A stretch of 64,000 nucleotides of DNA from a virus (IMGVR_UViG_3300042402_002841:62001-126000), one strand, 5' to 3'. Shown: positions 1 to 31,672, numbered from the stretch's first letter. A program made the numbers and translations. Notes: a model not told the origin generated them from the letters alone.

Positions 1-3000
1 ATAATTTCATCTGGCAAACCTTCTGATGCAATCCTATTTAATCCATGCTTTATTATTTTGTCCGCAACAGATTGGTCAATCATTCCACGCTCAACCATTA
101 CCTCTAGTGCTTTTTCTCCCGCATCTCTACCACCTCTTCTTGCGAGTGGGACTATTGCTCCAGCAGGTCCACCAGCGGAAAATCCAATTGCCATTTCTCC
201 AATTAGTTGAACAACATCTGCTTGTTCTGGGTTGACCCCAACTCTTTCAATAAGTTTTCTTCCAGTCCTACTTCCAAGCATTCTGCCCACCGCAGTGGCG
301 GTCATGCTTCCACTAGGTGTAAAACTCGCAAGACCACCTCTGTCGTCTTGTTCCTCACCCATGATTTTTGCAGACTGAATTGAAGGAATGGAATACATGG
401 AGCCAGGTTCGGTGTCTGCGATTGAATCAATTTCAATTTCTACAACAATGTCTTCCTCTATAACCGTTTTTTCAAGCGCTTGCATTGCTGGGGATGCAGA
501 ATCAATATCGCTATCAGTTACAGAATCAGGAGGGGTAATGCCATGCCTTCTAAATGCACTCAAAACTTCTGCATTTGATTCAAGTTCAAACTCTAAATCT
601 GGAGCAGAACGAGAAGCCAGATAAGAAATGGGAGGATTATCGGAAACAAAATCAATTGCTTCTATTTCTTCTGCGCTTAATCTTGCTTCTTGAGAAGATT
701 TTCTTAATGCATTTCTTCCTACTGAAGCACCAAGCCTGTCAGGATATGGCCCATTTTCTACAATCGTAAGAATGTCATGAACTGCTGGTGCAAAACCACG
801 ACCTACTCTCTGAAAGAGTGATTCATACATTTCAATTTCTTCTTGGATTTGTTCAAGGTCTGCTCGGAATTCACTAATATCATCATATGTGTCTGTAGTG
901 CTTGTGTTTCCTTGTTGTCTTCTTTCTTCGTATCTTCTTCTTGCTTCTTCTGACTTTATTTTAAACTCATTTGCCCCATTACGAAGATGAGTAATAGCAG
1001 ACATAAGTTTTCTTTTTTCTTCTGGGGTTATGTTTTCCCCTCTTTGTGCCTTTTGTCCAATTTCTTCAAGTTCCTCAAAAGACATACCCATTGTGTCTAC
1101 AAGGTTGTTTAAAAGTTCTTTTTTCTGCGTATCTCTAAGGCGGTGTCCTTTTCTGATGCGCATATTTCTCGCACTTCTAAACATTCCCCACAAGCCACCT
1201 TTGCCATCTTCTCCGTAAAGATGCTCCTCAATGTCTTGGTTGGTAAATCTTTCTTCCTTAATCATTCGTGGAACTTTGCCGTGTCTATCCTTTTCAAATG
1301 GGTCAACAGGACCACGGGGTGTTCTTCCTGTGGGTGCCGAAGGACGACGGGGTGTCTTTATTACTCCTGCGCCTTCGGGAAGCGTCGGCTCAACCAACAC
1401 TCCTGGAGTGATTGGTCTCTTAGGTTTAACTGGCTTAGGTGAATCAATCGGAGCATCTGGTCTTCTCCCAGGAATAATTAAATCACCATCTGGCACTGGT
1501 GGTGCTCCAGGAACTATTAATGGACCCCAGTGAGGAGATGTTGAGCCAGGAATAATAAGCCCACTTGGTGAGGGCGGTACAGAATCTATTATTTCTATTT
1601 CTTTTTCTGGCAAGAAAGCGTCAAGGACTTCATCAACTTCTGGATTATCTCCTATTAATCCAACTTCTCTGTTTGCAACAAGTTCTGCGTGCGTTTCAAA
1701 AAACGCCAAATTTCTAGCCTGATTAAACGCACGAGGGTTTCTTGTGTCCGCAAGTACACCGAGAGCCTCTTGTTGCTTGACTTGAGAATATTGGCCTGCA
1801 AGAGCATCAAGTCTTCTATCAATTAAATCATTAAAACTTATTCCAAAAACTTGAGCAATGTTTTCATCAGAAGCAGTGTCAATAAATTCTTGCACTACAG
1901 ACATGAGTTCACTGTTAGTTAATGCGTCAAAGTTTTCATCAGGATAAGAAAGTTTGAACCATTCAAATACTGCGTCGTATTGTTTTTTGTGGGTCATTTC
2001 GTGTGCGCCAACTTGGGCACCAAAGTCTTCCCATCCGTTCCCAGCCTCAGCCGCAAGGTCTGTTGAATATGTTTCAACCCACCTTCTTGATTTTTCGTCA
2101 CCACTCATGGCTTCCGTGATTGCTCTCCATTGGTCATCAATGTCGCCACCAGTAGCCTCATAAAGGTCCATGTATCCAGGACCTGGACCTTCTCTGTACC
2201 CCTGTATTGCTGGACCAGAACCTATGTAGATATCTGTCGGGCGAGCGACACCGCCTAACCCTTCAAAATCAAAGTTGCTCCTCCCTTTACTATCAACAAA
2301 GTAACCGAAGTCAACATATATTTCAAAAGGCTTACCGTTTTCAGTTTTAAAAGTTTCTGGATTTTTTGATGCTTCAACAAGTATTTGTTTAAAAGCACCA
2401 ATTCTGAATTTTTTTTCTCTTTCAATTGCTGCGTCAATAAAATTTGTTATGGTGTCGGGTATTCCATCTCTCTTTGCTTCTTCATATGCTGCAATAATTG
2501 CATCTTTGTCTAGCAAGCCAGTTTTTCTTCTTATGGCATCAAGATGCATTTCTACCGTTGTATCAATTACCCACTTTTCATGTTCTTCTGGGGACCCGCC
2601 CATAAATAATTTTTCAAATTGACCAGGAAGAGATGGCGCATCTGGGTCTTCGCTTTGACCAGAACTAAATGGCGCATCTGGGTCTTCGCTCATCGCTCTA
2701 AAAATTTCACCTAAAGCAAGGTATTCGTCTGGCTCCGTAATGCCGTATTTTGTTTTTAAGTCGTTGATGACTTTGTTTTTTTCATCCCTAACCCTGTTCA
2801 TTCTTGCTTCTGCGCCTCTTGTTGCATCCATGACATCTCTCACTCTTGCAACCACGCTTGAAACATAGGAAGGGTCATCTTCTCCTGCGTCGCCAACTAG
2901 TCCTTCCCCTATTCCAGCCCTTGATGCAAGACTCCTCAAGCCATCAATACCGTTCTCCTTGTAGGCTTTTCTAATCTCATAAGCAGACACACCTATATTC

Positions 3001-3740
3001 ATAAGCGATTCTGTGACACGAGACCTATTGCCTGGAGCGCTCATGATATTGCTTAAAGAACTGGCAATGTTTTGTATTTGGCTCGCAGAAATACCAAAGC
3101 AACCCTCTCCTCTTTCGTTGGTAAACCTGTTTGCGGCAGGCGTTCCTGGTGGACACCTAAACTTACCGAGTGAGTCAATAACTAACCCCATGGCTCTTGC
3201 CGCTCTTGCCGCAAGTTTTCCTGCAGGGTTTCTTTCACCAATAGTTTTTCCCAAAGATTTTATTTCTGGCTCAAAACCCTGAGACTTCATTGGTTCTCCA
3301 GTTTTTGGATTTACTGGATATCTAGTAACTTTTGCTACTGCTGTTTTTGGTTTTGGAAGACTATTTGTTGGTGCATTGCGGTCCATCCAACCCCAGTTTG
3401 GTACTGGGTCTGGAGAACGAAGCGCTTCAATTCTTTCTGACTCTGTTACATAGTGTTTAAAATACTGACCTTCTTTTTTAGTTGCGTCAGGGTCATAAAC
3501 AACGCCATTAATATTTTTGTAATTTGTTCCCTTTTCTAGTCCACGCTTTTTTCCGTCAGTATTGGGACTAGTAGGCATGGCGACCTTGACTGATACATCG
3601 GCAATTAATCTCTCTGATGTAGAGATAATTTTATTGCCAGCCTTGAATGTCAATGCAGCAGCGTCTGCGTCAAGGCGTGTTGTTCTGCTATTGAACCCAG
3701 GTGCGTAATGGCGAATTTTATTGATGTTCACCCCCGTCAT
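1..3740 (-). CDS. Giant virion-associated protein with HExxH motif (partial)
   Basis: Reading the minus strand from the ATG at 3740, the frame stays open for more than 1240 codons and leaves the window at base 1, so the C-terminus is missing. Visible landmarks are a cysteine-bearing RCPPGTPAANRF segment (about residues 191-215), a zinc-protease-like HEMTH (residues 580-584), a possible third ligand in FETHAEL (about residue 678), a proline-rich linker (about 730-790), a charged coiled-coil region and, near residue 1133, RGGLASFT, which matches a motif recurring in the protease fusion at 5282-11551. The start lies 17 bases after the upstream stop, so the genes are co-transcribed. A virion polyprotein or injected protein with a metallopeptidase domain is inferred. 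The family is not recognised. Confidence 0.75.
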   Translation of the reverse strand, partial: MTGVNINKIRHYAPGFNSRTTRLDADAAALTFKAGNKIISTSERLIADVSVKVAMPTSPNTDGKKRGLEKGTNYKNINGVVYDPDATKKEGQYFKHYVTESERIEALRSPDPVPNWGWMDRNAPTNSLPKPKTAVAKVTRYPVNPKTGEPMKSQGFEPEIKSLGKTIGERNPAGKLAARAARAMGLVIDSLGKFRCPPGTPAANRFTNERGEGCFGISASQIQNIASSLSNIMSAPGNRSRVTESLMNIGVSAYEIRKAYKENGIDGLRSLASRAGIGEGLVGDAGEDDPSYVSSVVARVRDVMDATRGAEARMNRVRDEKNKVINDLKTKYGITEPDEYLALGEIFRAMSEDPDAPFSSGQSEDPDAPSLPGQFEKLFMGGSPEEHEKWVIDTTVEMHLDAIRRKTGLLDKDAIIAAYEEAKRDGIPDTITNFIDAAIEREKKFRIGAFKQILVEASKNPETFKTENGKPFEIYVDFGYFVDSKGRSNFDFEGLGGVARPTDIYIGSGPAIQGYREGPGPGYMDLYEATGGDIDDQWRAITEAMSGDEKSRRWVETYSTDLAAEAGNGWEDFGAQVGAHEMTHKKQYDAVFEWFKLSYPDENFDALTNSELMSVVQEFIDTASDENIAQVFGISFNDLIDRRLDALAGQYSQVKQQEALGVLADTRNPRAFNQARNLAFFETHAELVANREVGLIGDNPEVDEVLDAFLPEKEIEIIDSVPPSPSGLIIPGSTSPHWGPLIVPGAPPVPDGDLIIPGRRPDAPIDSPKPVKPKRPITPGVLVEPTLPEGAGVIKTPRRPSAPTGRTPRGPVDPFEKDRHGKVPRMIKEERFTNQDIEEHLYGEDGKGGLWGMFRSARNMRIRKGHRLRDTQKKELLNNLVDTMGMSFEELEEIGQKAQRGENITPEEKRKLMSAITHLRNGANEFKIKSEEARRRYEERRQQGNTSTTDTYDDISEFRADLEQIQEEIEMYESLFQRVGRGFAPAVHDILTIVENGPYPDRLGASVGRNALRKSSQEARLSAEEIEAIDFVSDNPPISYLASRSAPDLEFELESNAEVLSAFRRHGITPPDSVTDSDIDSASPAMQALEKTVIEEDIVVEIEIDSIADTEPGSMYSIPSIQSAKIMGEEQDDRGGLASFTPSGSMTATAVGRMLGSRTGRKLIERVGVNPEQADVVQLIGEMAIGFSAGGPAGAIVPLARRGGRDAGEKALEVMVERGMIDQSVADKIIKHGLNRIASEGLPDEI

Positions 3741-3757
3741 AGCGGGCCACGCTTTCT

Positions 3758-5131
3758 CTAGATTGTTGGGTCTGTATCTTTGACCTCTGCCTCAAGAAGT
3801 TCAAACTCAATGAGTGATGCCATAAGGTCTGAATCTACTTCACCAGACTTTTCTTCAACTACTTTTGCTCCACCAGTAACCCAGTTGGCAGGAATCAACT
3901 TCTCTTGTCCAAGAGCCTTTGCTCTCTTCATGATGTGCTTTTTGGCTGCTTCTTTGTCTTTGGCGCGACCAAATGCGCTAATTGCATTCTTTAGGTCGTC
4001 AGTGTTGGAAATTGGATAAGAACCGTCTGGAAGAGCAGTTCCTTCTTTTGCCATCTGTGTACGAACATCCTCACTGAATGCTCTCTTAAGGGCGATTTCT
4101 GCGGCTTCTGCCTCAATTGCTTCTGCCTCTTCTGGCTCGTACTTGTCGTATCCAAGAACTTCGCCATCAAGTGAAACGAAAACATCGTAGGACTTTCCGT
4201 CAACGCCTTCAATTTCAACGGCGTATGAATCAAATCCTTCAAAAATGTCTGGCTCAACAGCGATTACTTCACCCTCAATTGACTTAACAGCAATTTCTGC
4301 TGCTTCATGGAAATCAATAACCATCATTGAGTCAAGAGCGGACTTTTGTTCAAAAGCGTTGTCATCAAGTTTATGGAAACCAAGAACTTCTGCAGTTGTT
4401 CCATCAATGTAAACCTCAACGGCTCTTCCGTCTTTTGCCTGAACATCAACAACAAACATGTCCGCATCAGACGAGTAGCCAGAGTCAAGAACCTTGCCCT
4501 TAAACATCTGCTCTGCAATACCCTCTACTGAAAGCAAGCCTGGCATTCCACGCTCTGGAACACATCCACCAGGACAATCGTCACAAACTCCCGAACCACC
4601 AGGGTAAACCTTGCGCTCAATTGCACACATGTAGGCGTTTCTTCCGAGTTCAGCAGACTTTTCCCCAAGGCTCATCAGACGCTTTTTTCTGGCTGCCTCA
4701 AGGTCTGTGCCACCCATGTCCGACATATCGTCGTCTTCTTCCTCTTCTTCGTCCTCTTCTTCCTCTTCGTCGTCATCTTCGTCGTCTGCATCCATATCAA
4801 CAGGCATTTTTTTCTTAGAGGTTGGCATTGAGGTCATTTCCTCATCGTCTTCATCTTCTTCTTCGTCGTCGCCAGGCATTCCCATTCCCATGCCCTTTTG
4901 GCGCTTTTTCATCTCTTCCATCATCATGCCGTCGTCCCAGTCTTTACCACCTTTTTCGTAGTAATCGTCGGACTCCGTGACGGGAACCATTTTCATTTGC
5001 ACTGGCATTGCACCGCACTTGCCGCAAACCTTTGCTCCTGGCGTATAACCGCAGTCGGCAGCGTTTGCGCCTTTTGCGCACTTGAGAACATTGCCGTCTG
5101 CATCAACGCTGACTTCAACTTTTTCGTCCAT
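3758..5131 (-). CDS. Acidic capsid-associated protein of unknown role
   Basis: The start at 5131 is chosen because AGGAGTTCATA precedes the ATG; a longer frame upstream lacks such a site. The 457-residue product has an N-terminal CxxC-type segment (VCGKCG), long runs of Asp/Glu around residues 80-150, a second cysteine cluster (CDDCPGGC), two repeated modules resembling PepSY-like folds (each holding a VEVYIDG or YDVFVSL strand), and a C-terminal SYPISNTDDLKNAI / HIMKRAKALG segment. That last segment resembles one commonly found at the ends of actinophage head proteins. Its position between two head polyproteins suggests a scaffold, decoration or capsid-related role. It does not look like a typical HK97-fold major capsid protein. 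Confidence 0.75.
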   Translation of the reverse strand: MDEKVEVSVDADGNVLKCAKGANAADCGYTPGAKVCGKCGAMPVQMKMVPVTESDDYYEKGGKDWDDGMMMEEMKKRQKGMGMGMPGDDEEEDEDDEEMTSMPTSKKKMPVDMDADDEDDDEEEEEDEEEEEDDDMSDMGGTDLEAARKKRLMSLGEKSAELGRNAYMCAIERKVYPGGSGVCDDCPGGCVPERGMPGLLSVEGIAEQMFKGKVLDSGYSSDADMFVVDVQAKDGRAVEVYIDGTTAEVLGFHKLDDNAFEQKSALDSMMVIDFHEAAEIAVKSIEGEVIAVEPDIFEGFDSYAVEIEGVDGKSYDVFVSLDGEVLGYDKYEPEEAEAIEAEAAEIALKRAFSEDVRTQMAKEGTALPDGSYPISNTDDLKNAISAFGRAKDKEAAKKHIMKRAKALGQEKLIPANWVTGGAKVVEEKSGEVDSDLMASLIEFELLEAEVKDTDPTI

Positions 5132-5212
5132 TATGAACTCCTGTTGTCGGTGAGTAAGGACACGAATGTCAATACCAAGTGTGAATCTGTTTGTAAAAGT
5201 ATAACTTAGCAC

Positions 5213-5281: not shown

Positions 5282-8200
5282 CTAATTTTTATTAATAAAT
5301 GTAGACATTGCGGCTTCGGAAACTTTTTCAAGCAGTTTTGAATACCAATCAATTCTCTTGTCTCCGCCTATTTCAATTTGGTTATCAAGAGCAAACATCA
5401 AACCTTCAAGAACAAGGTCTGCTTCATCGTCTGTCAAGTAGATACTTCCAACATTGGTTCTTCTGCTGCCAGTCTTTGATGCTTCATTTCTTCTAATAAC
5501 TTCTTGAAGTTTGCTTAGACCATCTTCAGCCTTTTTGTTCTTTGCTTTTTGTGCTGCTCTAATTTCTTTTTGTAAAGAAGTTTCAATATCTTTAAAGAAT
5601 GTGGCTTCATCGGTAATCATTGCTTTTGGTCTTGATGTGGAAGCAAGTCCAACTCTTGACCTCTTACCTTTGTCTGCCTCCTGCTTGCTTCTCATTTCTT
5701 CAATAACTTGACGAGCAACTTCGCTGATTTTCCTCATCTCGTTATCGCGTCTGGCGTTAGATTGAGGCATTTCTCTAGTTCCAGGTCTTGGTCTGTCAGC
5801 ATCTCTTGAGCGTGAGCGCGAGGCGAGACCACCAGAACGAGGTAAGTCATCAATAATCCATGGGTCCTCGGCATACTTGGCTTGCGTTTTGGAAAGTTGT
5901 CCAAGAAGTCTATTTGCTGAAGAAACACTAAGTTTTTCGTACTTATTTTCGCCAGGAGAGTTTGTCTCAATGTAATCCTCAAGTGCTTCAATTGCGTCAT
6001 TAATTGACTTCTTTGTCATATCCCTATCGCCAAGTAAGTCGTTAACTGTTTCCCAAATATCTTCAGAAACAATGTCAATTTCGCCATCAAAATCAAGTTC
6101 ATTAAGTTTATTTTTAATGTCTTGAATTTTTTCTTGGTAAGACTGTAACTCTTCTTCTCTTTGTTCTTTGCCTTCTTTGGCGCTTGCTTTTGGCTTGTAT
6201 GTTTTTTGTGAACCTTGAGTTTTTTCTTTTTCTTGTTGACGCTTTTTTCTTGCGTCACCTTGTCTTTCAATCTCTCTTGGGGAAATTTCTCTTGCCTGCT
6301 CTTCTCTTTCTTCGTTTCTCCGAGCACGACGCTGTTCTGGAGTCATAGAGCGTCTTTCTTCACGCTCCATGTCTTCCATAACTTTTTTAATTGCTCCCTG
6401 ATATGCGGCTTGAGACATCTTTTCGTTTTTGTCTTTAACTTTTTCTGGGTTACCTTCGTACATTAACCATTCAAATTTTTCATCATTTGTCAATTCATCC
6501 CAGTTATCTGGTTTTGCATCATCAAGGGAAAGTCCATCAAATTTAGTATTTTCTGCACCCCTAGTTGAGCCCCTGCCAGTGCCAAAATTGCCTCTTTCGT
6601 TGGCTGAAAGACCAACATCTCCGAGCCCTCTTGCACCAATTCCTCCTGGTCGCGCAGTTCTTCTCTCTTTATCGTTGTCACCAAATCCACCAGAAGATTC
6701 AAGACCAACTCTTCCCCTTCTTCCAGAACCACTGGCAGAACCAGGCCCAAAGTTTTGGTACATGGTGCGGAGTCGTTTCCACTTTGATGCTGCCAATTGA
6801 CCATCGTTTGCTTCAAAATCCCTAAGAGCATCTTGTACGAGTTGTAGATTGTTCGCTCTACCACTTCTTGCCCAGAAAATATAATCTTTCTGCATTGCTT
6901 CAGTTATGTCTGCTGGTGCACCGTTATTGGGTTTTCTTCCTTTATTGGTTGATGCAAGCCCTCCGCCCCTAATATTGAGGCTGGAGTATTCACCGTCATT
7001 GGATTCTGCTGCCTGTTCAAGAACACCAAGAAGGTCTGATGAAACCATTCCGCTTCTTGACTTTGATTGCTCAATTGCTTTAATCAAATCTTCGTACTCG
7101 TTATCATCAATTGAGAATTTGCCATTATTTGATTTTTCAAGTTTTTCAGAAACCGCTTTAAGAATATTTTTGTTTTCAGCAGTACGAGAAAGAAGTTCAA
7201 CCTCGTCCCTGAGTGAACCGATTTCGTCTTCCGTAAGTTCAATATCAAGTTTCTTGTGAGGATTTATTGTTCCACTTTGACTGGAGAATGCTCTTGTTTT
7301 TTTAATACGCCTTGCCCCTGCTTGTCCTGAAAGCCTTGTTCCAGACCTCTCAAGTGCTTCAGTGCTGTAATAACCATCTTTTGATTTCTTTGTTTTCTTC
7401 AAAGAATCAATCAGTTCGTCAATCGCTTTTTTATCGCCTTCATTATCAACTGCACCAAAGTTATTCATTCTGGTCAAAGTGTCAACATAATTATCAATTT
7501 CATCATCAGTCATTGGGATTGCATCATTTGCAACACTACTGTCATCAATTTTGTCAATTATATTTTTAAGGATTTCCATATCCTCATCTGAGCCAACACC
7601 GCCAACTTGCGAATCATCAAGATATTTTTCTAAAACATTTTGAAGTTCGCCATACTCTTCAAGAGTCATATCCATCTGTCGGTTTTCGGAAGCCAAACCT
7701 TCTCTTACCGCACGAGCATTTCTTCCTCTGTCTATGTTTTCGGATGCTGCATCGCCGACTGGGTCGTCAGCCATTCCTCTTCGTGCGCCTGGATTTCTTG
7801 GTCCAAATGCTTCGTCATAGTCTGTGTCGTCATCAAAATTTGAACTAGAGGCAAGACCTGAACGACCTTCTCTATCTTGTCGCTCTTGTCTTTTCTTTCT
7901 AGTAATTCCAATTTCACGCTGACGAAGTTTTGATGGCTCCATCTTGAGTAATTCTCCAGTTTGCTCAAGCGTTAGTCCACTTCTTAAATAAAGAAGGTCA
8001 TCTTCATCGTTTTCTTTTCTTAATTTTGCTGTCAATCTTCTCTCTGTTCTGCGAACTTCTCTCGGCGACATTCCAAATAGTTCAGCAGTATCACGAACAC
8101 TCAAGCCAGAGGCTCTGTACATGAGAAGGTCCATGTCTGAATTTGCCCCAGACTCAGAGTTTTGACTTAGTCTTCTAAATTCTCTATTTGCAGAAGATTT

Positions 8201-11200
8201 TGCAACCCTTGCACCACTCAGGTTGTACTTTTCAGCAATTTCTTTTGCTGACATTCCAGATAGAAAATCTCTAAAAATATCATTATCAGGAATTTGAGTA
8301 CCGTCTTCTGAAACGGTGCGAACTGGTCTTTGCAGGTTTCTTTCACCCCGTGTAGATGCTCTACTCTGTGAAGCCAATCCACCTCTACGGATATCATCTG
8401 GAACATATTGAGCAGGTTTTCCGCCTTCTCTAATAACACCACCGTCAGGAACGCCAGTTAGTTGTTCAATTTCATCATCGCTTAAACCAAGTTCTCTAAG
8501 TTTTTTGAAAACATTTTGGTCAAATTGCGCTCTTCTTTCGCGAGCCTCAGTTGGGTCAACATTTCCTCTTTCATCTCTCTGAATCTGACCATCTCGGCCA
8601 AGCATTGTGCCGTCTCCACGGCGAGATGTTGAAGCAAGACCTCCAGTAAGTGTCCGTTTTGCTCTTACTCTTTCTTGTAAGAATTCAGAATTTAGCCTTG
8701 CATCTTCAAGTTCATCCATAACCCCCTCATTTAGCCCGTTTTTAAAATAATCTTCCCAAAGCGAATTGATTTGTGGGTCGTTTGGATTTTCTTCAAATCC
8801 TTTTTTAGTTGCTCTTTGCAACTCTTTAGAAAAATCCTCTAAATCAATTGATGGGTCTAGTTCTATTATGTTTTCAACTTCAAACCAAAAATCCGCTTCG
8901 CTCATATCTGGCTCTCCGCTTTGAAGTGCCTGAATTAAATTTTCTTTTTTCTGAGACGATTCTTTTTTAGCGTCTTGAATTTCCTTATCAGTTGGTGGTT
9001 TGTTTGCCGACAGGCGACGAGCAGTTTTAAATACCGAATCTGACCATTCATCAACCGTTTCTTCAATCAGTTCATTAATTTTGTCTTCTTGTTTTCTAGA
9101 AGCGTTTTTAGGCATCATTCTTTCTGCAAGCATGCCTCTAACTGCGTCTGTTAAAGCCCTACCAACATCTTCGGATATATATCTATCAAAATTTCTTTCG
9201 CTGCTTTGCAGATTGAGATAATCATCAAAATCTCCGTTTTTTATTGCATCAAGGAAATTTTTTTTAGTTTCAGACAGCATTTCTTCGTCGTCATCAAGAT
9301 TTGAAATTATGTTTTTAAGTATGTCTGCATGTTTATCTGGGATACCGCTTCTATCAATAAATTTGTCCGACACGGGCTTTGAACCAGGACCGCTAACAAT
9401 TTCTCCCCTAAGAACTTCTGGTTTTTTTTCTACAGAAGTTGAAGCAAGTCCGCTTCTTCTCTTTTTTGCGAAGATGGATTCTGGATTCCATGAATCTGGG
9501 TTTTCCCAAGTTCTTTCGCTAAAAAAATCATAAACTTCGTCGTCAAATACTTTTTCTAAGCCCGCCTTACTGACAACCCCTTCATATTTTTCGTTAACCG
9601 CTACACCATATTGTTCTAGCAATCCAGCAAGAATATCTGAATCTTTTTCGGTGCCGTTTGCTAATTCAGTAAGTTTTTCTTTCATCTTTGTTTTGTCTTT
9701 AAGATTTAAGATGTCTAAAACTTCTTTTGAATTTTCTAAATCAAACTCTAAATCGTCTTGATAAAACTTACGAAGACCTTCAGCACTTTCAACGATGTCG
9801 TCAAGAAGTTTTTCATCAGAGCGAACAGCGTCAAGCATCGTTGTGCCCACTCTGCTTCCTGGTTCTCCCCCTGAATAATGAAAAAACGCTCTAGCCAACT
9901 CTTCGTTAGTTCTGTCTTCAAACCATTCTTCGTGGTCTTGTTCACGGGGGGTTAAACCTCTATATGAGGCTAGACCTTGTCTTTTTGGCTCTTTGGGAGT
10001 AGGGGTTTGTCTTCCTTGATTAAATGCACGAGTTGCTGCTTCAGCATCTACTCGGCCACCAGTGGACCTGTCGTTAACACCTGGGATTGCAGGGCGCTTA
10101 AATGGTGTTCCTTCTTGGACTACACCGTCTCCGTCACCATCCCATGCGTTTGGGTCAAACCTTGCCGCCCCTCTGGCGGCTCTGCCCAATTTTCCCAAGC
10201 CTCCGCTTAGCGTGCGCCCCAGGGCTTTTTCGGCCACGCTAATGGCCTCTATAAATTCGCTAGTGACACCAGATGTAACCACGATTCCGTCTTCTGTTAC
10301 ATGCGATTCAACTCTGTGGTAATCAAAAATTGGGTCAAGAAGTTGTTTTGTTTGAAAAGCGTTCTCAATAGGAACTGGGATTATATAGTCGCTCTTAACT
10401 TCAACATCTTTTTCTGCGGACGCAATTACTTCTTGCAGGTTTTCAAGAATGGCCTTGAGTCTTGACATGTTCTTACCACTAAGGGCACGCCCAACTTTTA
10501 CATCAAGTGAGTCAGAAATAATATTTGCTAGGTCTGCAAAATCTTCATCAAAAGACCATTTTTCGTCATTCTCGTAAGACTTTGGCATAATTATGCCATT
10601 CTCACCCATGTCGTCGCCCATATAGGCATTTCCTTGAGGTTTTACCTGCATTGGCATTGAAGGCATTTGTGAAGGAACAACGACTCGTGAGCCAGATTCT
10701 TCCGAAGATGGCATGTAAACGGTTTGCACAGAAACCTTTTCTGGCTTACCAAACATGAACTCTCTACCTGTGTAGTGGTACGCAACTCTGTAGGTTGTAG
10801 GCGCACCGTCTGGTGTCATTCTGTCAAAAATTACTGTATTTTCTTCTGCGAGACGAACTTTTACTGGAGCACCAGCACGGACAGCCAATTCAATCTCTAA
10901 TTGATTCTTGCGCTCATCTCCCACTCTTGGCTTATTTGCTTCAAGAATGTTAGGGGTTGGCCTTTGGTGTCTGTGCGGTATTCCACGGTTGCTTTGCAAC
11001 ATCAACATTCCGCCCTTGGAATCATCAATCATGGTTGAATCATCTGACTTTACTGAAATTGTTCCAGTCAACTGGTTGGCACCATGTAGAACTGGCGAAA
11101 CTTCGTAAAGTTCTACTTCTTTTAAGATGTTGGCCTGAAGATTGGGGTCAAAAATTGAATCAAGAGTCTTATAGCCGATTGACCATTCTTGTTCTTGTCC

Positions 11201-11551
11201 AAAAAAAGCCACATTGGCAAATGCTTCTCGTCCTTTTTCGGAACCTAAATTAAATTGAACTTTCGCATAAAGTCCACCAATTCCAGCCGTAAGCATTTTT
11301 GAAGGAAGTCTTCTGTCTCCAGGAGCAACTTCGTAGATTTCTAGCACCTTACCAATAGGGTCATTCCAGTTGTGCCCCCAAACAACACGAGGCTTTCTTC
11401 TTGTAAGGCTCTTTGTGAAGGCTCCAGAAACAAGAACATCTCCAACAGAATCTTTATTTCCAATACCAGCCACAAAGCATTCAACCATACCCTGTGCTTC
11501 GTCAATGTTGAACTGGCCTGGAATAGCCTTGAATTCAATGTTCTGGTTCAT
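5282..11551 (-). CDS. Prohead protease fused to a giant repeat-punctuated polyprotein
   Basis: The 2089-residue product starts after an AGGAGCATA ribosome site. Residues 1-165 match the HK97-type prohead protease (U35): WGHNW supplies the likely catalytic His60, EWSIGY the Ser124, and VELYEVSPV the usual following strand. Family members are normally 150-250 residues, so this one is about ten times longer. Beyond it come a DGDGDGVVQEGTPF calcium-loop-like segment (about 467-480), many charged helical blocks, and three tandem helix-turn-helix-like units (about 1080-1220). A GLAS motif in an (R)xGLAS(x)S context recurs about ten times between blocks. The protease presumably matures the capsid and may also process its own fused tail. 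Neighbours are the portal and the acidic head protein. The protease assignment is strong; functions of the downstream blocks are unknown. Confidence 0.9.
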   Translation of the reverse strand: MNQNIEFKAIPGQFNIDEAQGMVECFVAGIGNKDSVGDVLVSGAFTKSLTRRKPRVVWGHNWNDPIGKVLEIYEVAPGDRRLPSKMLTAGIGGLYAKVQFNLGSEKGREAFANVAFFGQEQEWSIGYKTLDSIFDPNLQANILKEVELYEVSPVLHGANQLTGTISVKSDDSTMIDDSKGGMLMLQSNRGIPHRHQRPTPNILEANKPRVGDERKNQLEIELAVRAGAPVKVRLAEENTVIFDRMTPDGAPTTYRVAYHYTGREFMFGKPEKVSVQTVYMPSSEESGSRVVVPSQMPSMPMQVKPQGNAYMGDDMGENGIIMPKSYENDEKWSFDEDFADLANIISDSLDVKVGRALSGKNMSRLKAILENLQEVIASAEKDVEVKSDYIIPVPIENAFQTKQLLDPIFDYHRVESHVTEDGIVVTSGVTSEFIEAISVAEKALGRTLSGGLGKLGRAARGAARFDPNAWDGDGDGVVQEGTPFKRPAIPGVNDRSTGGRVDAEAATRAFNQGRQTPTPKEPKRQGLASYRGLTPREQDHEEWFEDRTNEELARAFFHYSGGEPGSRVGTTMLDAVRSDEKLLDDIVESAEGLRKFYQDDLEFDLENSKEVLDILNLKDKTKMKEKLTELANGTEKDSDILAGLLEQYGVAVNEKYEGVVSKAGLEKVFDDEVYDFFSERTWENPDSWNPESIFAKKRRSGLASTSVEKKPEVLRGEIVSGPGSKPVSDKFIDRSGIPDKHADILKNIISNLDDDEEMLSETKKNFLDAIKNGDFDDYLNLQSSERNFDRYISEDVGRALTDAVRGMLAERMMPKNASRKQEDKINELIEETVDEWSDSVFKTARRLSANKPPTDKEIQDAKKESSQKKENLIQALQSGEPDMSEADFWFEVENIIELDPSIDLEDFSKELQRATKKGFEENPNDPQINSLWEDYFKNGLNEGVMDELEDARLNSEFLQERVRAKRTLTGGLASTSRRGDGTMLGRDGQIQRDERGNVDPTEARERRAQFDQNVFKKLRELGLSDDEIEQLTGVPDGGVIREGGKPAQYVPDDIRRGGLASQSRASTRGERNLQRPVRTVSEDGTQIPDNDIFRDFLSGMSAKEIAEKYNLSGARVAKSSANREFRRLSQNSESGANSDMDLLMYRASGLSVRDTAELFGMSPREVRRTERRLTAKLRKENDEDDLLYLRSGLTLEQTGELLKMEPSKLRQREIGITRKKRQERQDREGRSGLASSSNFDDDTDYDEAFGPRNPGARRGMADDPVGDAASENIDRGRNARAVREGLASENRQMDMTLEEYGELQNVLEKYLDDSQVGGVGSDEDMEILKNIIDKIDDSSVANDAIPMTDDEIDNYVDTLTRMNNFGAVDNEGDKKAIDELIDSLKKTKKSKDGYYSTEALERSGTRLSGQAGARRIKKTRAFSSQSGTINPHKKLDIELTEDEIGSLRDEVELLSRTAENKNILKAVSEKLEKSNNGKFSIDDNEYEDLIKAIEQSKSRSGMVSSDLLGVLEQAAESNDGEYSSLNIRGGGLASTNKGRKPNNGAPADITEAMQKDYIFWARSGRANNLQLVQDALRDFEANDGQLAASKWKRLRTMYQNFGPGSASGSGRRGRVGLESSGGFGDNDKERRTARPGGIGARGLGDVGLSANERGNFGTGRGSTRGAENTKFDGLSLDDAKPDNWDELTNDEKFEWLMYEGNPEKVKDKNEKMSQAAYQGAIKKVMEDMEREERRSMTPEQRRARRNEEREEQAREISPREIERQGDARKKRQQEKEKTQGSQKTYKPKASAKEGKEQREEELQSYQEKIQDIKNKLNELDFDGEIDIVSEDIWETVNDLLGDRDMTKKSINDAIEALEDYIETNSPGENKYEKLSVSSANRLLGQLSKTQAKYAEDPWIIDDLPRSGGLASRSRSRDADRPRPGTREMPQSNARRDNEMRKISEVARQVIEEMRSKQEADKGKRSRVGLASTSRPKAMITDEATFFKDIETSLQKEIRAAQKAKNKKAEDGLSKLQEVIRRNEASKTGSRRTNVGSIYLTDDEADLVLEGLMFALDNQIEIGGDKRIDWYSKLLEKVSEAAMSTFINKN

Positions 11552-11648: not shown

Positions 11649-11666
11649 TTAGTTTAAAGAAACTAA
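11649..11666 (-). other. AT-rich hairpin at the portal stop codon
   Basis: TTAGTTT and AAACTAA arms separated by four bases overlap the last codon of the portal gene. No T-run follows on the minus strand, so it may be an RNA-stability or partial-termination element between the portal and protease genes. The rest of the 110-base gap holds the protease ribosome site and no other recognisable signal. Confidence 0.3.
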
Positions 11667-13708
11667 ATTATATGAGACCCCATCGCCCATGCTCTCCTGG
11701 TCTCATCTTCTGCTATTTGTGATTTCTTTTTAGCAAGGAGGTTTGTAAATGTACCAACAAGCGATGTTCTCAAAGTCGTTGCTTTGTCTTCCTCGCCAAC
11801 GACGCCAAGTGTTGCAAAAATTGCGTTATTAATTTCTTGAGCAGTTTCTTCGTTTATTGACTTAATTCTTAACATTTGAGAGTTAATATGAGCAATAATG
11901 TCCTCTTTTTCAAGAGAGGTCTTAATAAGAGACTTTTCAGAATATGTACTTTGAGCATCATTGATAATTGCATTCAAGACTGGCCTGATGTCTTCATCCA
12001 TTTGTTTGGCCCAAATATCTGAACTAAATATAGATTCAACATCAAGTGCTCCAATAGCCAACTGCTTTCTTGCTTTTACGCCAGATGCTTTTTCAAGAAC
12101 AACACGCTGTTGTCTTTCAAAGATTCTTTCAAGACTTCTGTCAAGAATCTCAGTCCATCTATTAAATGTTGTTTCAACTCGCAATTCCCAATCCTTATTG
12201 GATTTTGTAGAAACAACCGAGTAGTTGGCGGAGGCCTGTGCTGGCGCTGTAGGCATGGCTGCTTGTTCTGGGGGCCCAACATTCGGCAACCCAGCACCTT
12301 GAGCCATTTCTTGCCCTTGCTGAGCCAAGGCCATTGCGCCTTCCATTGTGGTTGGGTCTGGGGGCATTGCTCCAGCATCTGCTCCTGGAGGCATTCCTGG
12401 GTCTCCTGGAGGCATTCCTGGCATCCCTGGTGCTCCGCCCATCACTCCAGCCTGAGGTGGTTCTTCCATCTTCTTCTTCGTGTTGGCAATAGGGGTTAGG
12501 TTTGGGTTCATCAAGAGAGAATCAGCAAGGTCGCTATCCACTTCTTTTCTTCCAGAGCCAATTCTGTATTCGTTTGTACTAATTAGACCTTGACTGAGTT
12601 CTTCTTTTAGATATCTTTGTCTTTCCTGTTCGTAAAGAATTAAAACAGGAACTTGCGAAGTATTAAAATCAATATAGTGGTCTTCATCAAGTTCATCTAA
12701 AGCACGAGCAATTGGTTCAAGATGAGGGAGCATTGTTTCGTTCCAAAAAACTCTAATCTCTTCTCCAGCGTTGGAAAATGTGCGACCAGCGGCATTTCCA
12801 ATAACTGATTCAGGTACACCGAAAGATGCAAGAATTTCTTCTTTTGTTATTTGTCGCATCTGAATGTAGGCAGCGTCTCTTGGGTTCGCTGATGTATCAA
12901 CAAAGTCTGCGCCATCATCGGAAGAAATAACCGTAGTTGCGCCAGCGCGAGCAATATTTCCTCTAAATCTGCTTTTCAACTCTTCTTTGTCGTCGTCATC
13001 AATTTCCCCACGAAGCACAAGAAGACCACCAGGTCTGCCGTCATTAAGAAGGTAATTACGATTATATACTTTTGCTAAATTCTCAATTTCAATAGCAATA
13101 CCAGCAGACTCAAGTGGAGTCATTGAAAGATAAGGGTCCAATGGATGAGGTCTGCGAATCCAAACCACATCTTTAGCCTTCATGTTTATAACACTGCCGT
13201 TGGGCATTCTCACTTCATATCCAGCAACAAAGTTTTTAGGGTCTGGAATCGGAGAGGTTGATTGTGGCGGTAATAGGTTGAGACCAATAACACCACCATC
13301 TCGCCCATAAATTTTTTCAATAAACACGCCTCTTGTGCTCATTAACAGTTGGGAAGACAACCTGTATCGGAATATAAAAGAATTTTCTCCGATGTTTGAC
13401 TTTGTGTTTAGTAATTTAAGTATTTCTGAATTTTTGGCTTTAGAGCCAGTAACAATCTCGCCGTCTGGTGAATTGTTTTTTCTTAAAACAATAGGCAAGC
13501 GTGCTTGATTTCCAGCGATTGCGTCAATACATCTAGCCACCCATGTGACCTTCTGCATGCCTTCTTTGTAGACACGCTCAATATCCCATGAATCATTATA
13601 TGCCTTACCAGCGAACCCAGGATTGTGGGCGATAGGCGCACCAGGACCAACGCTCTTGGAGGATTGATTACCGTTTAATGATTTATTTTGAAAATTATTC
13701 CAAGCCAT
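11663..13708 (-). CDS. Phage portal protein
   Basis: The 681-residue product is a portal of the HK97/SPP1 type: the dodecameric ring at the capsid vertex through which DNA enters and to which the tail joins. Recognisable stretches include SWDIERVYKEGM near the N-terminus, DVVWIRRPHPLDPY and GRPGGLLVLRGE in the middle, and ITKEEILASFGVP with FWNETMLPHLEPI in the stem/crown part. A Met/Pro/Gly-rich insert (about residues 415-490) precedes a C-terminal helical region longer than in typical portals. It follows the small membrane gene by two bases and precedes the prohead protease, the classical portal-protease order, although here on the strand opposite to the terminase. Confidence 0.93.
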   Translation of the reverse strand: MAWNNFQNKSLNGNQSSKSVGPGAPIAHNPGFAGKAYNDSWDIERVYKEGMQKVTWVARCIDAIAGNQARLPIVLRKNNSPDGEIVTGSKAKNSEILKLLNTKSNIGENSFIFRYRLSSQLLMSTRGVFIEKIYGRDGGVIGLNLLPPQSTSPIPDPKNFVAGYEVRMPNGSVINMKAKDVVWIRRPHPLDPYLSMTPLESAGIAIEIENLAKVYNRNYLLNDGRPGGLLVLRGEIDDDDKEELKSRFRGNIARAGATTVISSDDGADFVDTSANPRDAAYIQMRQITKEEILASFGVPESVIGNAAGRTFSNAGEEIRVFWNETMLPHLEPIARALDELDEDHYIDFNTSQVPVLILYEQERQRYLKEELSQGLISTNEYRIGSGRKEVDSDLADSLLMNPNLTPIANTKKKMEEPPQAGVMGGAPGMPGMPPGDPGMPPGADAGAMPPDPTTMEGAMALAQQGQEMAQGAGLPNVGPPEQAAMPTAPAQASANYSVVSTKSNKDWELRVETTFNRWTEILDRSLERIFERQQRVVLEKASGVKARKQLAIGALDVESIFSSDIWAKQMDEDIRPVLNAIINDAQSTYSEKSLIKTSLEKEDIIAHINSQMLRIKSINEETAQEINNAIFATLGVVGEEDKATTLRTSLVGTFTNLLAKKKSQIAEDETRRAWAMGSHII

Positions 13709-27118: not shown

Positions 27119-30100
27119 ATGGCTGAAGCGAAACTTACAATTGACATTGATGTTGATGGTGTAGCAAAAGCAGTAACAGGCCTAGCCAGTGTTAATAGGG
27201 CTGTAAGAAACATTGACAGCAGAACAAATGGTCTTGCTACAACCGCTCGTGGGGCTGGACAAACAATACAGACCAGCGTTAATAAGTGGAAAAAGTCTTT
27301 TGACCAGTTTGACAAAATGGTCAAGATGGTGGGAACCGTAGGCTTAAAAGGCCTTTCAATGGCGCTCAAATTTGCAACTTTTGAAATGGCCGCTATGGGT
27401 GCAGCCATGCTTGCCGTGCATGGTGCCTTTATCTTGGGTAATGCAGCAATGAAGGCTATGAAGGCCACCTTGGGGCCTCTTGCTGCTGGTATGACTGGGA
27501 TTGTCGCAGCAGCAGCCGCAGCATCTGCGGCAATCAGGGAGCAGCAAGCCGCAATGTGGGCTTACAAAAATAACTCCGCCCCCCAGTTTGGTTCTGGTTT
27601 AAATCAAGCAAGAATGGTGATGCGTGCCCTTCATACTGATGTTGAATTGTCAACAGTCGGCATTGAGAATTTAAACAAAGCCTATGGGACCATTTCAAAA
27701 TCTTCAACCTTTACAGCACAGAGTCAAAACCTTCTTAAAGGATTAATGGACTTTGCTTCAGCGGGTCAACCAATTGAAGAAGGAATAACAAAAGCAGCAG
27801 AATTGGTTGCTTTGCTCCAAGATTCAAAAAAGTCTTTTTCTGAAGCAAAATCATCAGCAGAACAACTTTTTCCAGATAAAAAAGCCGTTCAAAAAGCGAT
27901 GAAAGACTTAAAAATAAATACAAAAGAAGGTCTTCAAAAAGCAATCACAAGCGGTGAATTGGCAAAGGCTGCTGGTGTTGAAGGTCAGTTTGATGCAGTT
28001 TCTGGAACCTTGATGAACAGAGTAAAAGGCTATTTTACTATTTTGAGAAATCAATTAGGAGACCTTGGTCAACCACTTCTTGAACCAATAAAAGAAGCAG
28101 CAAATTCAATATTTAATATTCTTCGTCGTGGGTTTGTAAAAATTTCTGGTAACACACAAAAATTTGGCATGGGCTCAATGCTTGAAGGTTTAGTCAATAT
28201 GGTTGACAAACTCACTACATGGTCCACTGATTTGATTAATGAAAATATTTCATCAGTTGAAGGCATGTTTGAGAAAATGGCTGGATGGTGGAAGGATTTT
28301 AGATACGGCTGGAATGAAACGCTTGACAAATTAAGACCGTTTATTGATGGTGCTCGCGTAATTGAAAAAGCATTTGGTGAAGTGTGGCGACATGTAAAAG
28401 ATATTGTTGGTTCAGGTTTTGGTCAATTCAATGAATGGCTTCAACAAAATGAAGAAACGGTAGTTGAATTTGGTGGAAAAATCGGAGACCTTTTTACTTC
28501 AATTATGAAGTTTCAAATGGAAATGAAAAAAATCATTCAAGACCTAATGCCCTTTATCAACAATGTTATTGGTGGCGTGTCGCAAATGGTTGACCAGATG
28601 ACCAGTTTTATAAAAGCGCTTCGGTCAATTACTGGCGGTGGCGTTATTGGAGCGCTTGCTAGTCTTCTTGCAATTAGGGGCGCGTTTGGTGCAATGAAAA
28701 ACACCAAAGGCGGATGGATGGCAAAACAAACAATAACAACTCAACCAATAAACGCTCAGCAAGTTGTTATTAACACTCCATCTGTGGTCCCTGGCGGTGG
28801 AAGACTTGGAACCACTGGCGCTGCAATGCGTAATGGGGTACCAGCAGGACCTGGCGGTTTAGCAAGCGCTACTCCCCGATATGGCCTAGCCAGTAGTGGG
28901 TTTGGGCCAACAAATTATCCACAATATTATGCGCATGGAGGTCCTGGGGGCTTAGGTGGTACTCGTGGAGCGCCCCTTCCTGGACCCGCTATACCAATGG
29001 TTGGCCAACCAGGTTATCAACCAAGCCTTATTCATGGTCCGCAAAGAACCCGAGGAAGAAGAGCAGCCGTAGGCGCTTACAACAGGTTTAGAAACTTTTC
29101 TTACAACACATTTACGATGCCTGCCGAATCAGACGAAATGTATCAACAGAGACGGGCTACAGAAACAAGAATTGATAGACACGGAAACGAAGTTTATACT
29201 CGTTCAGCAAAGTTTAGACAAAGACAAGCAGCCCAAAGAGCGGCTCGTTCTGGACCGTTCATGTCTAAGGGGTATAAGGCTTTAGGGCAGTTTCAAGGTT
29301 CTCAAGGTGTGAAGATGGGAACTGGTCTTGCTCTTGGAGCAATGTCTCAATTTGCACCAGCAGAAGCACAGGGCGCGCTTGCTCTTGGTGGAATGGTTGG
29401 CATGATGAACCCGCTCGCTGGTATTGGTGTTGCTGGTCTTGGTACTGCTATGAAATCCAAAACAACAACAGGAGGAATGCTTTCTGGTGCTGCTGGTGGA
29501 GCAGCGATGGGTGCGATGGTTGGAAGTATTATCCCAGGACTTGGGACAGCGGCAGGTGCAGCGGCAGGCGCATTGATTGGTGCCGTAGGTGGCGGAATCA
29601 TGGGGTCTATTAATAAAAATAAAGAACAAGTAAAGGCCGCAAGGGAAGCAGCATCAAACGCTGGACAAAGCATTATTAATGGAGTTCTTTCTGGTGTTCT
29701 TGATGGAGTAAGGAAAGAAAGCGGCACTAAAGGTAGAACCGTTCTAAGAGATGCACTTCCAAATATTAGAGCAAAACAAGAATCAGCCCTCAGCATCATT
29801 AATCAAGCACCAGAAAAAAGAGGAAATTACTTCGGAATAATGCCAGACGCATTGGACCGTGGTGCAACTGGTGGTCAAATTGGTCTTGTTATGGAAAACT
29901 ACACCAAAAAAAGAATGCCAGGAATATTGAGAAAAGCAATTGGCGCAGCAACGATGAGTATGGATATTGCTGGAAATCTTGCTTATGGAACAGTTAGCAA
30001 ACTGGGTATGAAAAGCCTTACTGACAACCGTGTTCTCAACCCCCTTGGATACTCAACCAATAACCTTAAAGATGTTGATAAGAGAAAACAAGAAGAGGCT

Positions 30101-31672
30101 TTGAGAACCTTATATAGAAAACAAGATTCTTTAGGAATGAAAATTTCTGAAAAAGAACTCCAAGAAATGATGAAAAAACCTGGAGACGCACTTAAAAAAA
30201 TGCGCAAAGACATGGAGAATAACGAAAAAGCCATGGGACCAATTCAGGATTCCTACAACGCAAGAATGGATAAGTTAGGAAAAATTACTGGCAAGTCTGA
30301 CAGGGAGATTAATGATTTAGCAAAATCAATGGGCGTCAACCTCATGGATAATACTAAAGAATTTACAGAGGTATTAAAAGACCTTGGATTGGCAACAGTA
30401 AAAACAGTACAACAACTGCAGAGTGCCTTAACTAATGTCTATGTTGATGCTTTGTCAGAATTTGACAAAGCAATTAAAGCGCTCCAAACGCCACAAATCC
30501 TTGATGAATCAGCAGAGGCTTTCAGAAGACTTTATGATGCTCAGGGCGGAAGCGTAACAAAAGAGCAAGAACTTCAATATGTAAGTGATTTTTTTGAACA
30601 AACACTCACATACTTTGAAGGCGACCCAATGAAAGCGTACGCGCAAACTATTGAGTCTTTGCAGAAAAACGGAACTGCTTTTACTGACCCAAGAAGCCCG
30701 CTCTATGGAATGCAGAACATGGACTTGCTCGGCAGTGATGTTACTAAGGGTGTTTTGGAGAGAATGACTTCTGGATTTGGTGCCGAATATGGTGGGCGAC
30801 TGAACTCAATGCTCATGCAGTCAGGCGTATCTGTTAATCAAGAAGATTTTAACGCAAGATGGCAAGCCATGACCATGGACCAAAGAATGACTGCTGCTTC
30901 GGCTATTACTGGAGGAATTGGAACTGGAAAAGATAGGCAGATGGCTATCAATAAGTATGGTTCTGAATCGGCGGCACTGTTAGCGGTGGCAGGCTTGACT
31001 GATTTGACAACTAGCGCAGTTGAAACACCAGGAACAGAGGCAAAAGACCTTGCTGAAGTTTCAGAAGAAATAGCAACAGCAACAACTAGGTTGATTGACC
31101 AAATGTCTGAGTATTTTAAAGTAGCAGATAATGCAGTTCCTTCTTGGTACAACACTCCTCCATCTTGGTGGGACCCTAAAGATACTTCAACCCCTCGCGG
31201 TCAGGCTTTTGGTGACACAACCTCAAGTCGTCTCTCGCAGACAATGGCTCGCCACGCCTCTATGAATAGCATGTTGACGGGAACACGCACTGTCACTTCT
31301 GGCTATAGAAACTACGGTCTTGGTTCAATAAATTCCGACCATGTAACTGGAAGAGCATATGACCTTGTTGGTCAAAACCTGGGACAGTACCAATCCTTAG
31401 TCAGGGGAACTGGTGGTTTTGCAGAATTCCACGGAGTTAATGGAGCAAGACATCTTCATGTAGTTCCTGGTTCTGGGGCTATTGGAGATAGCCGTGTACC
31501 TGTATCTTCCTCTACTACACCAGGGCCGATAGTAATGTCTGGCGGTGGAGGTGGTGGAAATAACTACAACTTCTATGTGAGTGGAAATCAAAATGCCTCT
31601 GCTGGTGAAATAGCAGAAATAGTTATGCAAAAAGTTAAAGAAGTAGAACGCTCAAATAGGGAGAGAAGATAA
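27119..31672 (+). CDS. Tape measure protein with M15-type peptidase domain
   Basis: The 1517-residue product sets tail length and occupies the tube lumen. The N-terminus (LTIDIDVDGVAKAVTGLASV) and an Ala/Gly-rich hydrophobic stretch near residues 90-140, plus another at about 740-840, are typical. Long helical regions follow. Residues about 1395-1450 hold a peptidase of the M15/LAS type: SGYRN, SDHVTGRAYD (His and Asp zinc ligands) and ARHLHV (third His), which would cut peptidoglycan cross-bridges during DNA entry. A Gly/Pro-rich stretch around 28855-28900 contains two GLAS motifs like those in the prohead protease fusion. Confidence 0.93.
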   Translation: MAEAKLTIDIDVDGVAKAVTGLASVNRAVRNIDSRTNGLATTARGAGQTIQTSVNKWKKSFDQFDKMVKMVGTVGLKGLSMALKFATFEMAAMGAAMLAVHGAFILGNAAMKAMKATLGPLAAGMTGIVAAAAAASAAIREQQAAMWAYKNNSAPQFGSGLNQARMVMRALHTDVELSTVGIENLNKAYGTISKSSTFTAQSQNLLKGLMDFASAGQPIEEGITKAAELVALLQDSKKSFSEAKSSAEQLFPDKKAVQKAMKDLKINTKEGLQKAITSGELAKAAGVEGQFDAVSGTLMNRVKGYFTILRNQLGDLGQPLLEPIKEAANSIFNILRRGFVKISGNTQKFGMGSMLEGLVNMVDKLTTWSTDLINENISSVEGMFEKMAGWWKDFRYGWNETLDKLRPFIDGARVIEKAFGEVWRHVKDIVGSGFGQFNEWLQQNEETVVEFGGKIGDLFTSIMKFQMEMKKIIQDLMPFINNVIGGVSQMVDQMTSFIKALRSITGGGVIGALASLLAIRGAFGAMKNTKGGWMAKQTITTQPINAQQVVINTPSVVPGGGRLGTTGAAMRNGVPAGPGGLASATPRYGLASSGFGPTNYPQYYAHGGPGGLGGTRGAPLPGPAIPMVGQPGYQPSLIHGPQRTRGRRAAVGAYNRFRNFSYNTFTMPAESDEMYQQRRATETRIDRHGNEVYTRSAKFRQRQAAQRAARSGPFMSKGYKALGQFQGSQGVKMGTGLALGAMSQFAPAEAQGALALGGMVGMMNPLAGIGVAGLGTAMKSKTTTGGMLSGAAGGAAMGAMVGSIIPGLGTAAGAAAGALIGAVGGGIMGSINKNKEQVKAAREAASNAGQSIINGVLSGVLDGVRKESGTKGRTVLRDALPNIRAKQESALSIINQAPEKRGNYFGIMPDALDRGATGGQIGLVMENYTKKRMPGILRKAIGAATMSMDIAGNLAYGTVSKLGMKSLTDNRVLNPLGYSTNNLKDVDKRKQEEALRTLYRKQDSLGMKISEKELQEMMKKPGDALKKMRKDMENNEKAMGPIQDSYNARMDKLGKITGKSDREINDLAKSMGVNLMDNTKEFTEVLKDLGLATVKTVQQLQSALTNVYVDALSEFDKAIKALQTPQILDESAEAFRRLYDAQGGSVTKEQELQYVSDFFEQTLTYFEGDPMKAYAQTIESLQKNGTAFTDPRSPLYGMQNMDLLGSDVTKGVLERMTSGFGAEYGGRLNSMLMQSGVSVNQEDFNARWQAMTMDQRMTAASAITGGIGTGKDRQMAINKYGSESAALLAVAGLTDLTTSAVETPGTEAKDLAEVSEEIATATTRLIDQMSEYFKVADNAVPSWYNTPPSWWDPKDTSTPRGQAFGDTTSSRLSQTMARHASMNSMLTGTRTVTSGYRNYGLGSINSDHVTGRAYDLVGQNLGQYQSLVRGTGGFAEFHGVNGARHLHVVPGSGAIGDSRVPVSSSTTPGPIVMSGGGGGGNNYNFYVSGNQNASAGEIAEIVMQKVKEVERSNRERR

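What the first reader, a model, noticed from the sequence alone, without database searches (positions are those of the whole stretch)
5282..11551. Recurring GLAS motif divides a protease-headed giant protein into blocks
Seen in sequence: (R/G)xGLAS(T/S) occurs about ten times on the minus strand, at about 9959-9985, 9432-9455, 8625-8645, 8361-8385, 7845-7865, 7682-7705, 6945-6970, 6690-6712 (GLES variant), 5815-5838 and 5629-5658. Each separates charged helical blocks, and the N-terminus is an HK97-type prohead protease. The same motif appears once in the neighbouring giant protein (310-345) and twice in the tape measure (28855-28900). Known: prohead proteases cleave capsid proteins and scaffolds at short defined sites. 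Inference: GLAS is the cleavage site of this protease, so the 2089-residue protein is a self-processed polyprotein whose fragments are scaffold or internal virion proteins. Linkers without cleavage are the alternative.
Basis: partly seen in the sequence, partly recalled or inferred. Interest (0 to 1): 0.85.

Follow-up and report, generated by a model that had tools for sequence, protein, structure and literature searches.

The report
Virus-specific cut-mark in phage giant proteins
Phages of one abundant uncultured group string their virion-borne effector domains together behind a capsid protease and separate them with one short sequence that is the same throughout a virus but differs between viruses, which is what a protease cutting site would look like, although no cut has yet been shown.

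Summary
GLAS occurs 9 times (plus one GLES) in the 2089-aa protein, against 0.07 expected. It also marks four more giant head-cluster proteins of the same 132-kb virus and its tape measure. Relatives from IMG/VR carry a different motif at homologous positions: GFAS, GMAS, GFSS, GLRS, GMRS, (R/G/K)LSSG, PLGSRS, STRS, ISGRM and others. Each variant is repeated across its virus. Copies use varied synonymous codons. None of 212 copies falls inside a Pfam domain (29.9 expected). All four copies tested by AlphaFold lie in disordered linkers. Blocks in relatives include ArdC anti-restriction, UvrD helicase, exonuclease, zeta-toxin kinase, NUDIX and DnaJ domains. Concerted change at many unrelated sites needs something that reads the motif in trans and argues against inert linkers. 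The best reading is a proteolytic processing site in phage polyproteins that carry effectors. The scaffold reading of the fragments is not supported; identified blocks look like effectors.

The parts
5282..11551 (-). 2089-aa polyprotein-like ORF: S78 protease head, blocks separated by GLAS, conserved helical C-terminus
11057..11488 (-). Peptidase_S78 prohead protease domain (aa 22-165); invariant H60, S124, H156
   Evidence: Pfam PF04586; alignment A1; fold resembles T4 gp21 and herpesvirus assemblins
10220..11551 (-). conserved N-terminal head (aa 1-444); a separate gene in some relatives (566 aa in G022, 460 aa in G030)
9962..10240 (-). EF-hand-like segment (aa 438-530: FDPNAWDGDGDGVVQEGTPFKRP) shared with three other giant proteins of this virus, followed by the first GLAS
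9965..9976 (-). motif 1 KRQGLASYRG (aa 526)
9440..9451 (-). motif 2 RRSGLASTSV (aa 701)
8630..8641 (-). motif 3 LTGGLASTSR (aa 971)
8369..8380 (-). motif 4 RRGGLASQSR (aa 1058)
8006..8152 (-). sigma70-r4/HTH-like helix-turn-helix in the block between motifs 4 and 5
   Evidence: Pfam Sigma70_r4_2 E 1.3e-5, just under its cut-off
7847..7858 (-). motif 5 GRSGLASSSN (aa 1232)
7688..7699 (-). motif 6 VREGLASENR (aa 1285)
6950..6961 (-). motif 7 RGGGLASTNK (aa 1531); GFAS/GMAS/GFSS/GLRS at the homologous site in relatives
   Evidence: AF2 disordered segment
6695..6706 (-). motif 8 GRVGLESSGG (GLES, aa 1616); GFSS at the homologous site in G002
5819..5830 (-). motif 9 RSGGLASRSR (aa 1908)
5639..5650 (-). 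motif 10 SRVGLASTSR (aa 1968); orthologous site found in ten viruses, most with their own variant
5285..5650 (-). conserved C-terminal helical block after motif 10
3758..5212 (-). acidic 484-aa protein between the two giants
   Evidence: PHROG 80 match at its C-terminal part (aa 408-450), E 2.7e-4; weak PepSY
3..3740 (-). part of the 1744-aa second giant protein (runs off the window)
1989..2003 (-). HEMTH zincin motif (aa 580 of the 1744-aa protein); HExxH in the second giant of the other motif-bearing viruses
324..335 (-). GLAS in the second giant (DDRGGLASFTP)
11663..13708 (-). portal protein (no motif)
   Evidence: Pfam PF04860 E 1.3e-48
27119..31672 (+). tape measure protein, 1517 aa
   Evidence: identity inferred from size, position and homologues
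27179..27190 (+). GLAS in tape measure (aa 21)
28856..28867 (+). GLAS in tape measure (GPGGLASATP)
28883..28894 (+). GLAS in tape measure (RYGLASSGF)

Best explanation
GLAS is this virus's version of a processing site. The 2089-aa protein and four other giants are phage polyproteins that load a set of effector and enzyme domains into the virion. A phage-encoded protease cuts them at the motif, most likely in the prohead or at assembly, so that separate domains can be ejected into the host with the DNA. The most likely enzyme is the S78 protease at the N-terminus of the 2089-aa protein, acting in cis and in trans. Shown: motif enrichment, placement in linkers, concerted virus-specific variation, presence in head giants and tape measure, effector domains between motifs in relatives. 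Inferred: cleavage, timing, the enzyme, ejection.
For: GLAS x9 vs 0.07 expected. Copies use varied synonymous codons, so selection is on protein, not a DNA repeat. Relatives show virus-specific variants at homologous positions. Over 32 orthologous sites in 16 viruses, within-virus identity of the variable residues is 0.49 vs 0.23 permuted, 0 of 5000 reach it. 0 of 212 motifs fall inside recognised domains vs 29.9 expected. A motif starts 8-21 residues before the ArdC domain in all 7 ArdC-bearing giants tabulated, at ORF positions 1029-4365 and with different variants. The four motifs in the AF2 model fall in four pLDDT<50 linkers between helical domains. Blocks 87-375 and 376-701 of the 3112-aa protein are paralogues aligned from their GLAS onward. 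HK97 mature capsid protein is 282 of 385 residues, so it starts at S104-L-G-S, the same x-L-x-S core; L202 uses PLGSRS. The S78 model resembles T4 gp21 and herpes assemblins. Motif class follows the protease tree.
Against: No cleavage product is known. The capsid protein's conserved maturation region (VKDVYSALPSGT) stays constant while linkers change. The tape measure, a tail protein, carries the motif, which a protease active only inside the prohead would not reach. Some relatives keep S78 and giant ORFs with no detectable motif (G028, G034, L362). Co-variation of S78 residues with motif class is confounded by kinship. A zincin and a proteasome-like hydrolase are alternative enzymes.
Confidence: 0.6

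Rival explanations
1. The motif is a processing site, but the cutter is the zincin metallopeptidase in the second giant protein (1744 aa here), working in the infected cell or after injection, as proposed by Iyer et al. for polyvalent proteins.
For: HExxH outside the first giant in every motif-bearing virus whose second giant is in view (23 of 23 nonredundant loci). No HExxH in the head cluster of motif-less G028, G032, G034 although S78 is there. Fast-evolving. Would explain motifs in the tape measure. Iyer et al. propose MPTase processing of polyvalent proteins (PMC5512222).
Against: 25 loci scored motif-less also have a zincin, some with too little sequence to judge. The absence pattern rests on few evolutionary events. 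No resemblance of the motif to a known zincin site was tested.
Confidence: 0.2
2. The motif is a binding or sorting tag (cargo-loading or ejection signal, or a modified serine) read by a co-evolving virion protein, not cut.
For: Concerted variation only requires a reader, not a protease. It marks head giants and tape measure, both plausibly ejected. Many copies per protein would give avidity.
Against: Copies lie at domain junctions, never within domains; only 2 of 381 copies lie within 40 aa of a C-terminus, where tags often sit. The capsid protein, a natural binding partner, is about 92% identical between viruses with different motifs, e.g. own GLAS vs G002/G003 GFSS.
Confidence: 0.15
3. The motif is an inert flexible linker.
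For: It lies in Gly/Ser/Arg-rich disordered segments; a few giant relatives lack it.
Against: Inert linkers would drift independently. Here unrelated sites share one variant per virus, including the tape measure, and a hydrophobic residue is kept.
Confidence: 0.03
4. The motif is a DNA-level recombination seam or repeat.
For: Blocks move as cassettes, e.g. the kinase-like block is in the protease ORF of G002 but in the 1298-aa protein here.
Against: Codons of the 25 copies differ at every synonymous position.
Confidence: 0.02

Closest known systems
Polyvalent proteins of phages and conjugative elements (Iyer et al. 2017, PMC5512222)
   Same: Giant multidomain phage late proteins with ArdC-N, zincin MPTase-PolyVal, helicase, kinase and other conflict domains; peptidase processing proposed by those authors
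   Different: [quoted passage not shown] here an S78 prohead protease is N-terminal. A repeated virus-specific separator motif is not mentioned in the passages of that paper that I read
HK97-type prohead protease (Peptidase_S78) and capsid maturation
   Same: Pfam S78 domain, next to portal, HK97-fold capsid protein; HK97 cut before S-L-G-S matches the motif core
   Different: HK97 protease is a small separate protein (own knowledge); here it heads an effector string of up to 4736 residues
T4 gp21 and the SPN3US/phiKZ-type proteases with ejected head proteins
   Same: A prohead protease trims many internal, ejected head proteins at a short shared motif (SPN3US gp245, PMC10052503)
   Different: Those mostly remove N-terminal propeptides of separate proteins; here sites would separate domains of one chain, and the motif differs between close relatives
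Gordonia Bendigovirus proteases (GMA6, Gray) and Brevibacterium phage Cantare
   Same: Closest cultured relatives by protease (39-44%) and capsid (about 47%)
   Different: In GMA6 and Gray the protease ORF is about 455-485 aa, next to the capsid gene, with no effector load in that ORF

Membership tests
Peptidase_S78 prohead protease | S78 domain above Pfam cut-off | tested here: met
   PF04586 40.8 bits vs 21
Peptidase_S78 prohead protease | conserved catalytic His and Ser | tested here: inconclusive
   H60, S124 and H156 invariant in 14 aligned relatives; assignment as catalytic is by analogy
Peptidase_S78 prohead protease | cleaves the capsid protein | not testable with these tools
   HK97-type capsid gene present with a region aligning to HK97 K103|S104
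Polyvalent protein | several unrelated conflict-type domains in one chain | tested here: met
   In relatives: ArdC + MPTase-PolyVal + UvrD + RNase_T + KTSC behind S78. In this virus: NUDIX, DUF3626 and three HExxH motifs in the 3112-aa protein, zeta toxin in the 794-aa protein. In the 2089-aa protein itself only S78 and an HTH were recognised
Polyvalent protein | packaged and delivered with the DNA | not testable with these tools
   gene position among head genes only
Virus polyprotein | several sites matching one consensus between functional domains | tested here: met
Virus polyprotein | cleavage at those sites | not testable with these tools
   needs mass spectrometry or an in vitro assay
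Virus polyprotein | site co-varies with the protease | tested here: inconclusive
   motif classes follow the S78 tree but any gene of these viruses may do so; column associations are clade-confounded

The most novel reading that the evidence does not exclude
These phages use a private, virus-specific cleavage (or delivery) code. One short motif, largely uniform within a virus and changed in concert across many unrelated sites, marks the giant effector proteins and the tape measure. It is read by one phage-encoded enzyme and could limit exchange of effector cassettes between viruses with different codes.
Probability: 0.45. Interest if true: 0.9.

Novelty: new variant of a known kind. Interest (0 to 1): 0.8.

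Why it matters
If true, tailed phages have polyproteins in the sense used for RNA viruses, with the capsid-maturation machinery or a companion peptidase as processing enzyme. The motif would then give fragment boundaries for dozens of unannotated effectors, including anti-restriction proteins, in an abundant aquatic phage group (about 600 contigs by protease). The many natural motif variants paired with 70-90% identical proteases would also be a ready-made set for studying how protease specificity evolves.

Tried and rejected
A second motif K(S/A)LG near N-termini, which I first took for the real prohead site, is not significantly enriched (11 vs 4.3, shuffles reach 13), so it is only a weak lead. 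Protease residues 131/133/144 associate with motif position 3, but only because one clade shares both. A first pooled test of motif identity was contaminated by conserved structural tetramers and was replaced. The EF-hand-plus-first-GLAS segment finds nothing in cultured phages. The S78 profile finds no solved structure by sequence. PADLOC finds nothing in the three proteins tried. The 3112-aa protein has no close relatives except the same virus. The literature search for phage polyproteins with prohead proteases found none relevant, in an open-licence library only. In larger samples some relatives first scored as motif-less had new variants (LSGSM in L294, GPxGxM in L372, GSKSTT in L417), while L362, G028 and G034 still showed none.

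Full report
What is there. The window is bases 62001-126000 of a 132,392-bp virus record. GLAS occurs nine times in the 2089-aa ORF; shuffling its residues gives 0.07 on average and never more than 2, and no 4-mer of any kind exceeds 4. The N-terminus is a Peptidase_S78 domain. An AlphaFold model of that domain (mean pLDDT 72) finds Epstein-Barr virus protease, T4 gp21 and other herpesvirus assemblins as its best PDB folds, with weak E-values (0.013-0.04 for the first three) but nearly all top hits from this one family.

The head genes continue outside the window on the same strand. GLAS also occurs ten times in a 3112-aa protein and twice each in 794-, 1298- and 1744-aa proteins. The capsid protein (452 aa) is of the HK97 family. 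The 25 copies in the giants use different synonymous codons throughout, so this is not a DNA repeat.

The decisive comparison. Scans with the capsid protein and the protease returned hundreds of IMG/VR relatives. The S78 domain was found in 33 of 40 relative records, at the head of open frames of 474-4740 codons (ORFs from the first start codon 460-4736 aa). In most of these an over-represented 4-mer of the giants is a variant of the motif, and it is particular to the virus: GFAS, GFSS, GMAS (13 copies), GLRS (15), GMRS, (R/G/K)LSSG, RFSSG, STRS (21), PLGSRS, and in another branch (I/V)(S/T)GxM. At homologous positions the variant is usually the virus's own: RVGLASTS here, TRGFASTS in G001, RMGFSSST in G002, TRGLRSST in G005. 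Across 32 orthologous sites and 16 viruses, identity of the two variable residues between different sites of one virus is 0.49; shuffling variants among viruses within each site gives 0.23 (maximum 0.34 in 5000). Kinship among the viruses was thinned, not removed.

The tape measure. In 15 of 18 viruses the tape measure protein carries that virus's own motif, 25 copies against 6.1 when motif assignments are permuted (0 of 20000). Whatever reads the motif therefore acts on a tail protein too, or on everything that leaves the virion.

Where the motifs sit. In 19 giant proteins from this virus and relatives, 0 of 212 motifs lie inside recognised domains (Pfam envelopes and HExxH positions), against 29.9 expected. 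Multi-part enzymes are not split: UvrD helicase (about 605 aa in G024) has motifs 24 residues before and after it; ArdC with its metallopeptidase has a motif 8-21 residues upstream in all seven giants tabulated, whichever variant the virus uses. In an AlphaFold model of residues 1460-2089, built from 12 sequences, the four motifs fall in the four long low-confidence segments between helical domains; overall confidence is moderate (mean pLDDT 67, pTM 0.27), so only the alternation of order and disorder is used. In the 3112-aa protein two adjacent metallopeptidase-like blocks are paralogues whose alignment starts at GLAS in both.

What the blocks are. In relatives the chain behind the S78 head holds ArdC-N, MPTase-PolyVal, UvrD, RNase_T exonuclease, KTSC, sigma70-r4/HTH and WYL; other giants of the head cluster hold DnaJ, zeta toxin, NUDIX, GNAT and pentapeptide repeats. 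Several of these are domains of polyvalent proteins (PMC5512222). In this virus's own 2089-aa protein only S78 and an HTH block are recognisable; the remaining blocks are unassigned and partly helical, so the effector role of those blocks rests on the relatives and on sister giants. Block content turns over while the first about 440 residues and the last about 120 stay conserved.

Who reads the motif. S78 is the natural suspect. It is fused to the substrate, and HK97's known cut gives a mature protein starting S-L-G-S (PDB chains of 385 and 282 residues), matching the motif core x-(L/F/M)-x-S. The capsid protein of this family aligns ALPS there, also fitting the loose core. But the capsid site is the same in viruses with different linkers; in G022 and G030 the S78 head is a separate gene, so it would have to act in trans; and the tape measure is not a prohead protein. 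A zincin lies downstream in every motif-bearing virus where the second giant is in view (23 of 23) and is missing in the motif-less G028, G032 and G034, but it also occurs in 25 loci scored motif-less. A proteasome-like N-terminal-nucleophile hydrolase is a third candidate. I put cleavage by some protease at about 0.8 in all: about 0.4-0.6 for S78 as cutter, 0.2 for the zincin, the rest for other enzymes; the tag, linker and DNA-repeat readings share the remaining 0.2.

Limits. All relatives are metagenomic contigs, often fragments; gene calls are mechanical ORFs; motif variants were chosen from the same sequences in which they were then counted. The homologous-site and domain-overlap tests use those choices; the tape-measure test used proteins that were not used to choose the motifs, except for this virus. 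No virion protein has been examined.

Noticed in passing
G000:C1:125643-126257, starting at window 63643: Proteasome beta-subunit-like Ntn-hydrolase ORF (partial Pfam match, PF00227 E 3.6e-7); homologues in 11 of 18 relative records.
   Followed up: partly
window 9962-10240 and three other giants: EF-hand-like segment FDPNAxDGDGDGxVQEGTPFERP recurs in several giant proteins, usually before the first motif, in this virus and many relatives.
   Followed up: partly
window 48045-49562: Tryptophan halogenase (Pfam E 3e-103) in a phage late region.
   Followed up: no
window 19122-21771: ParB-N protein, PAPS-reductase-like protein and a further small ORF in a row, reminiscent of IbrA/IbrB-type or DNA-modification gene pairs.
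   Followed up: no
A2 alignment; own 1298-aa protein C-terminus (C1:51750-55646): Kinase-like block (DPKTGxxYYxK...NAWLANWD) sits in the protease ORF of G001/G002 but at the end of another giant here: a cassette that changes protein.
   Followed up: partly
L417, L372, L294, L353: Further candidate motif variants (GSKSTT, GPxGxM x7, LSGSM, GVVGxM) in relatives first scored as motif-less.
   Followed up: partly
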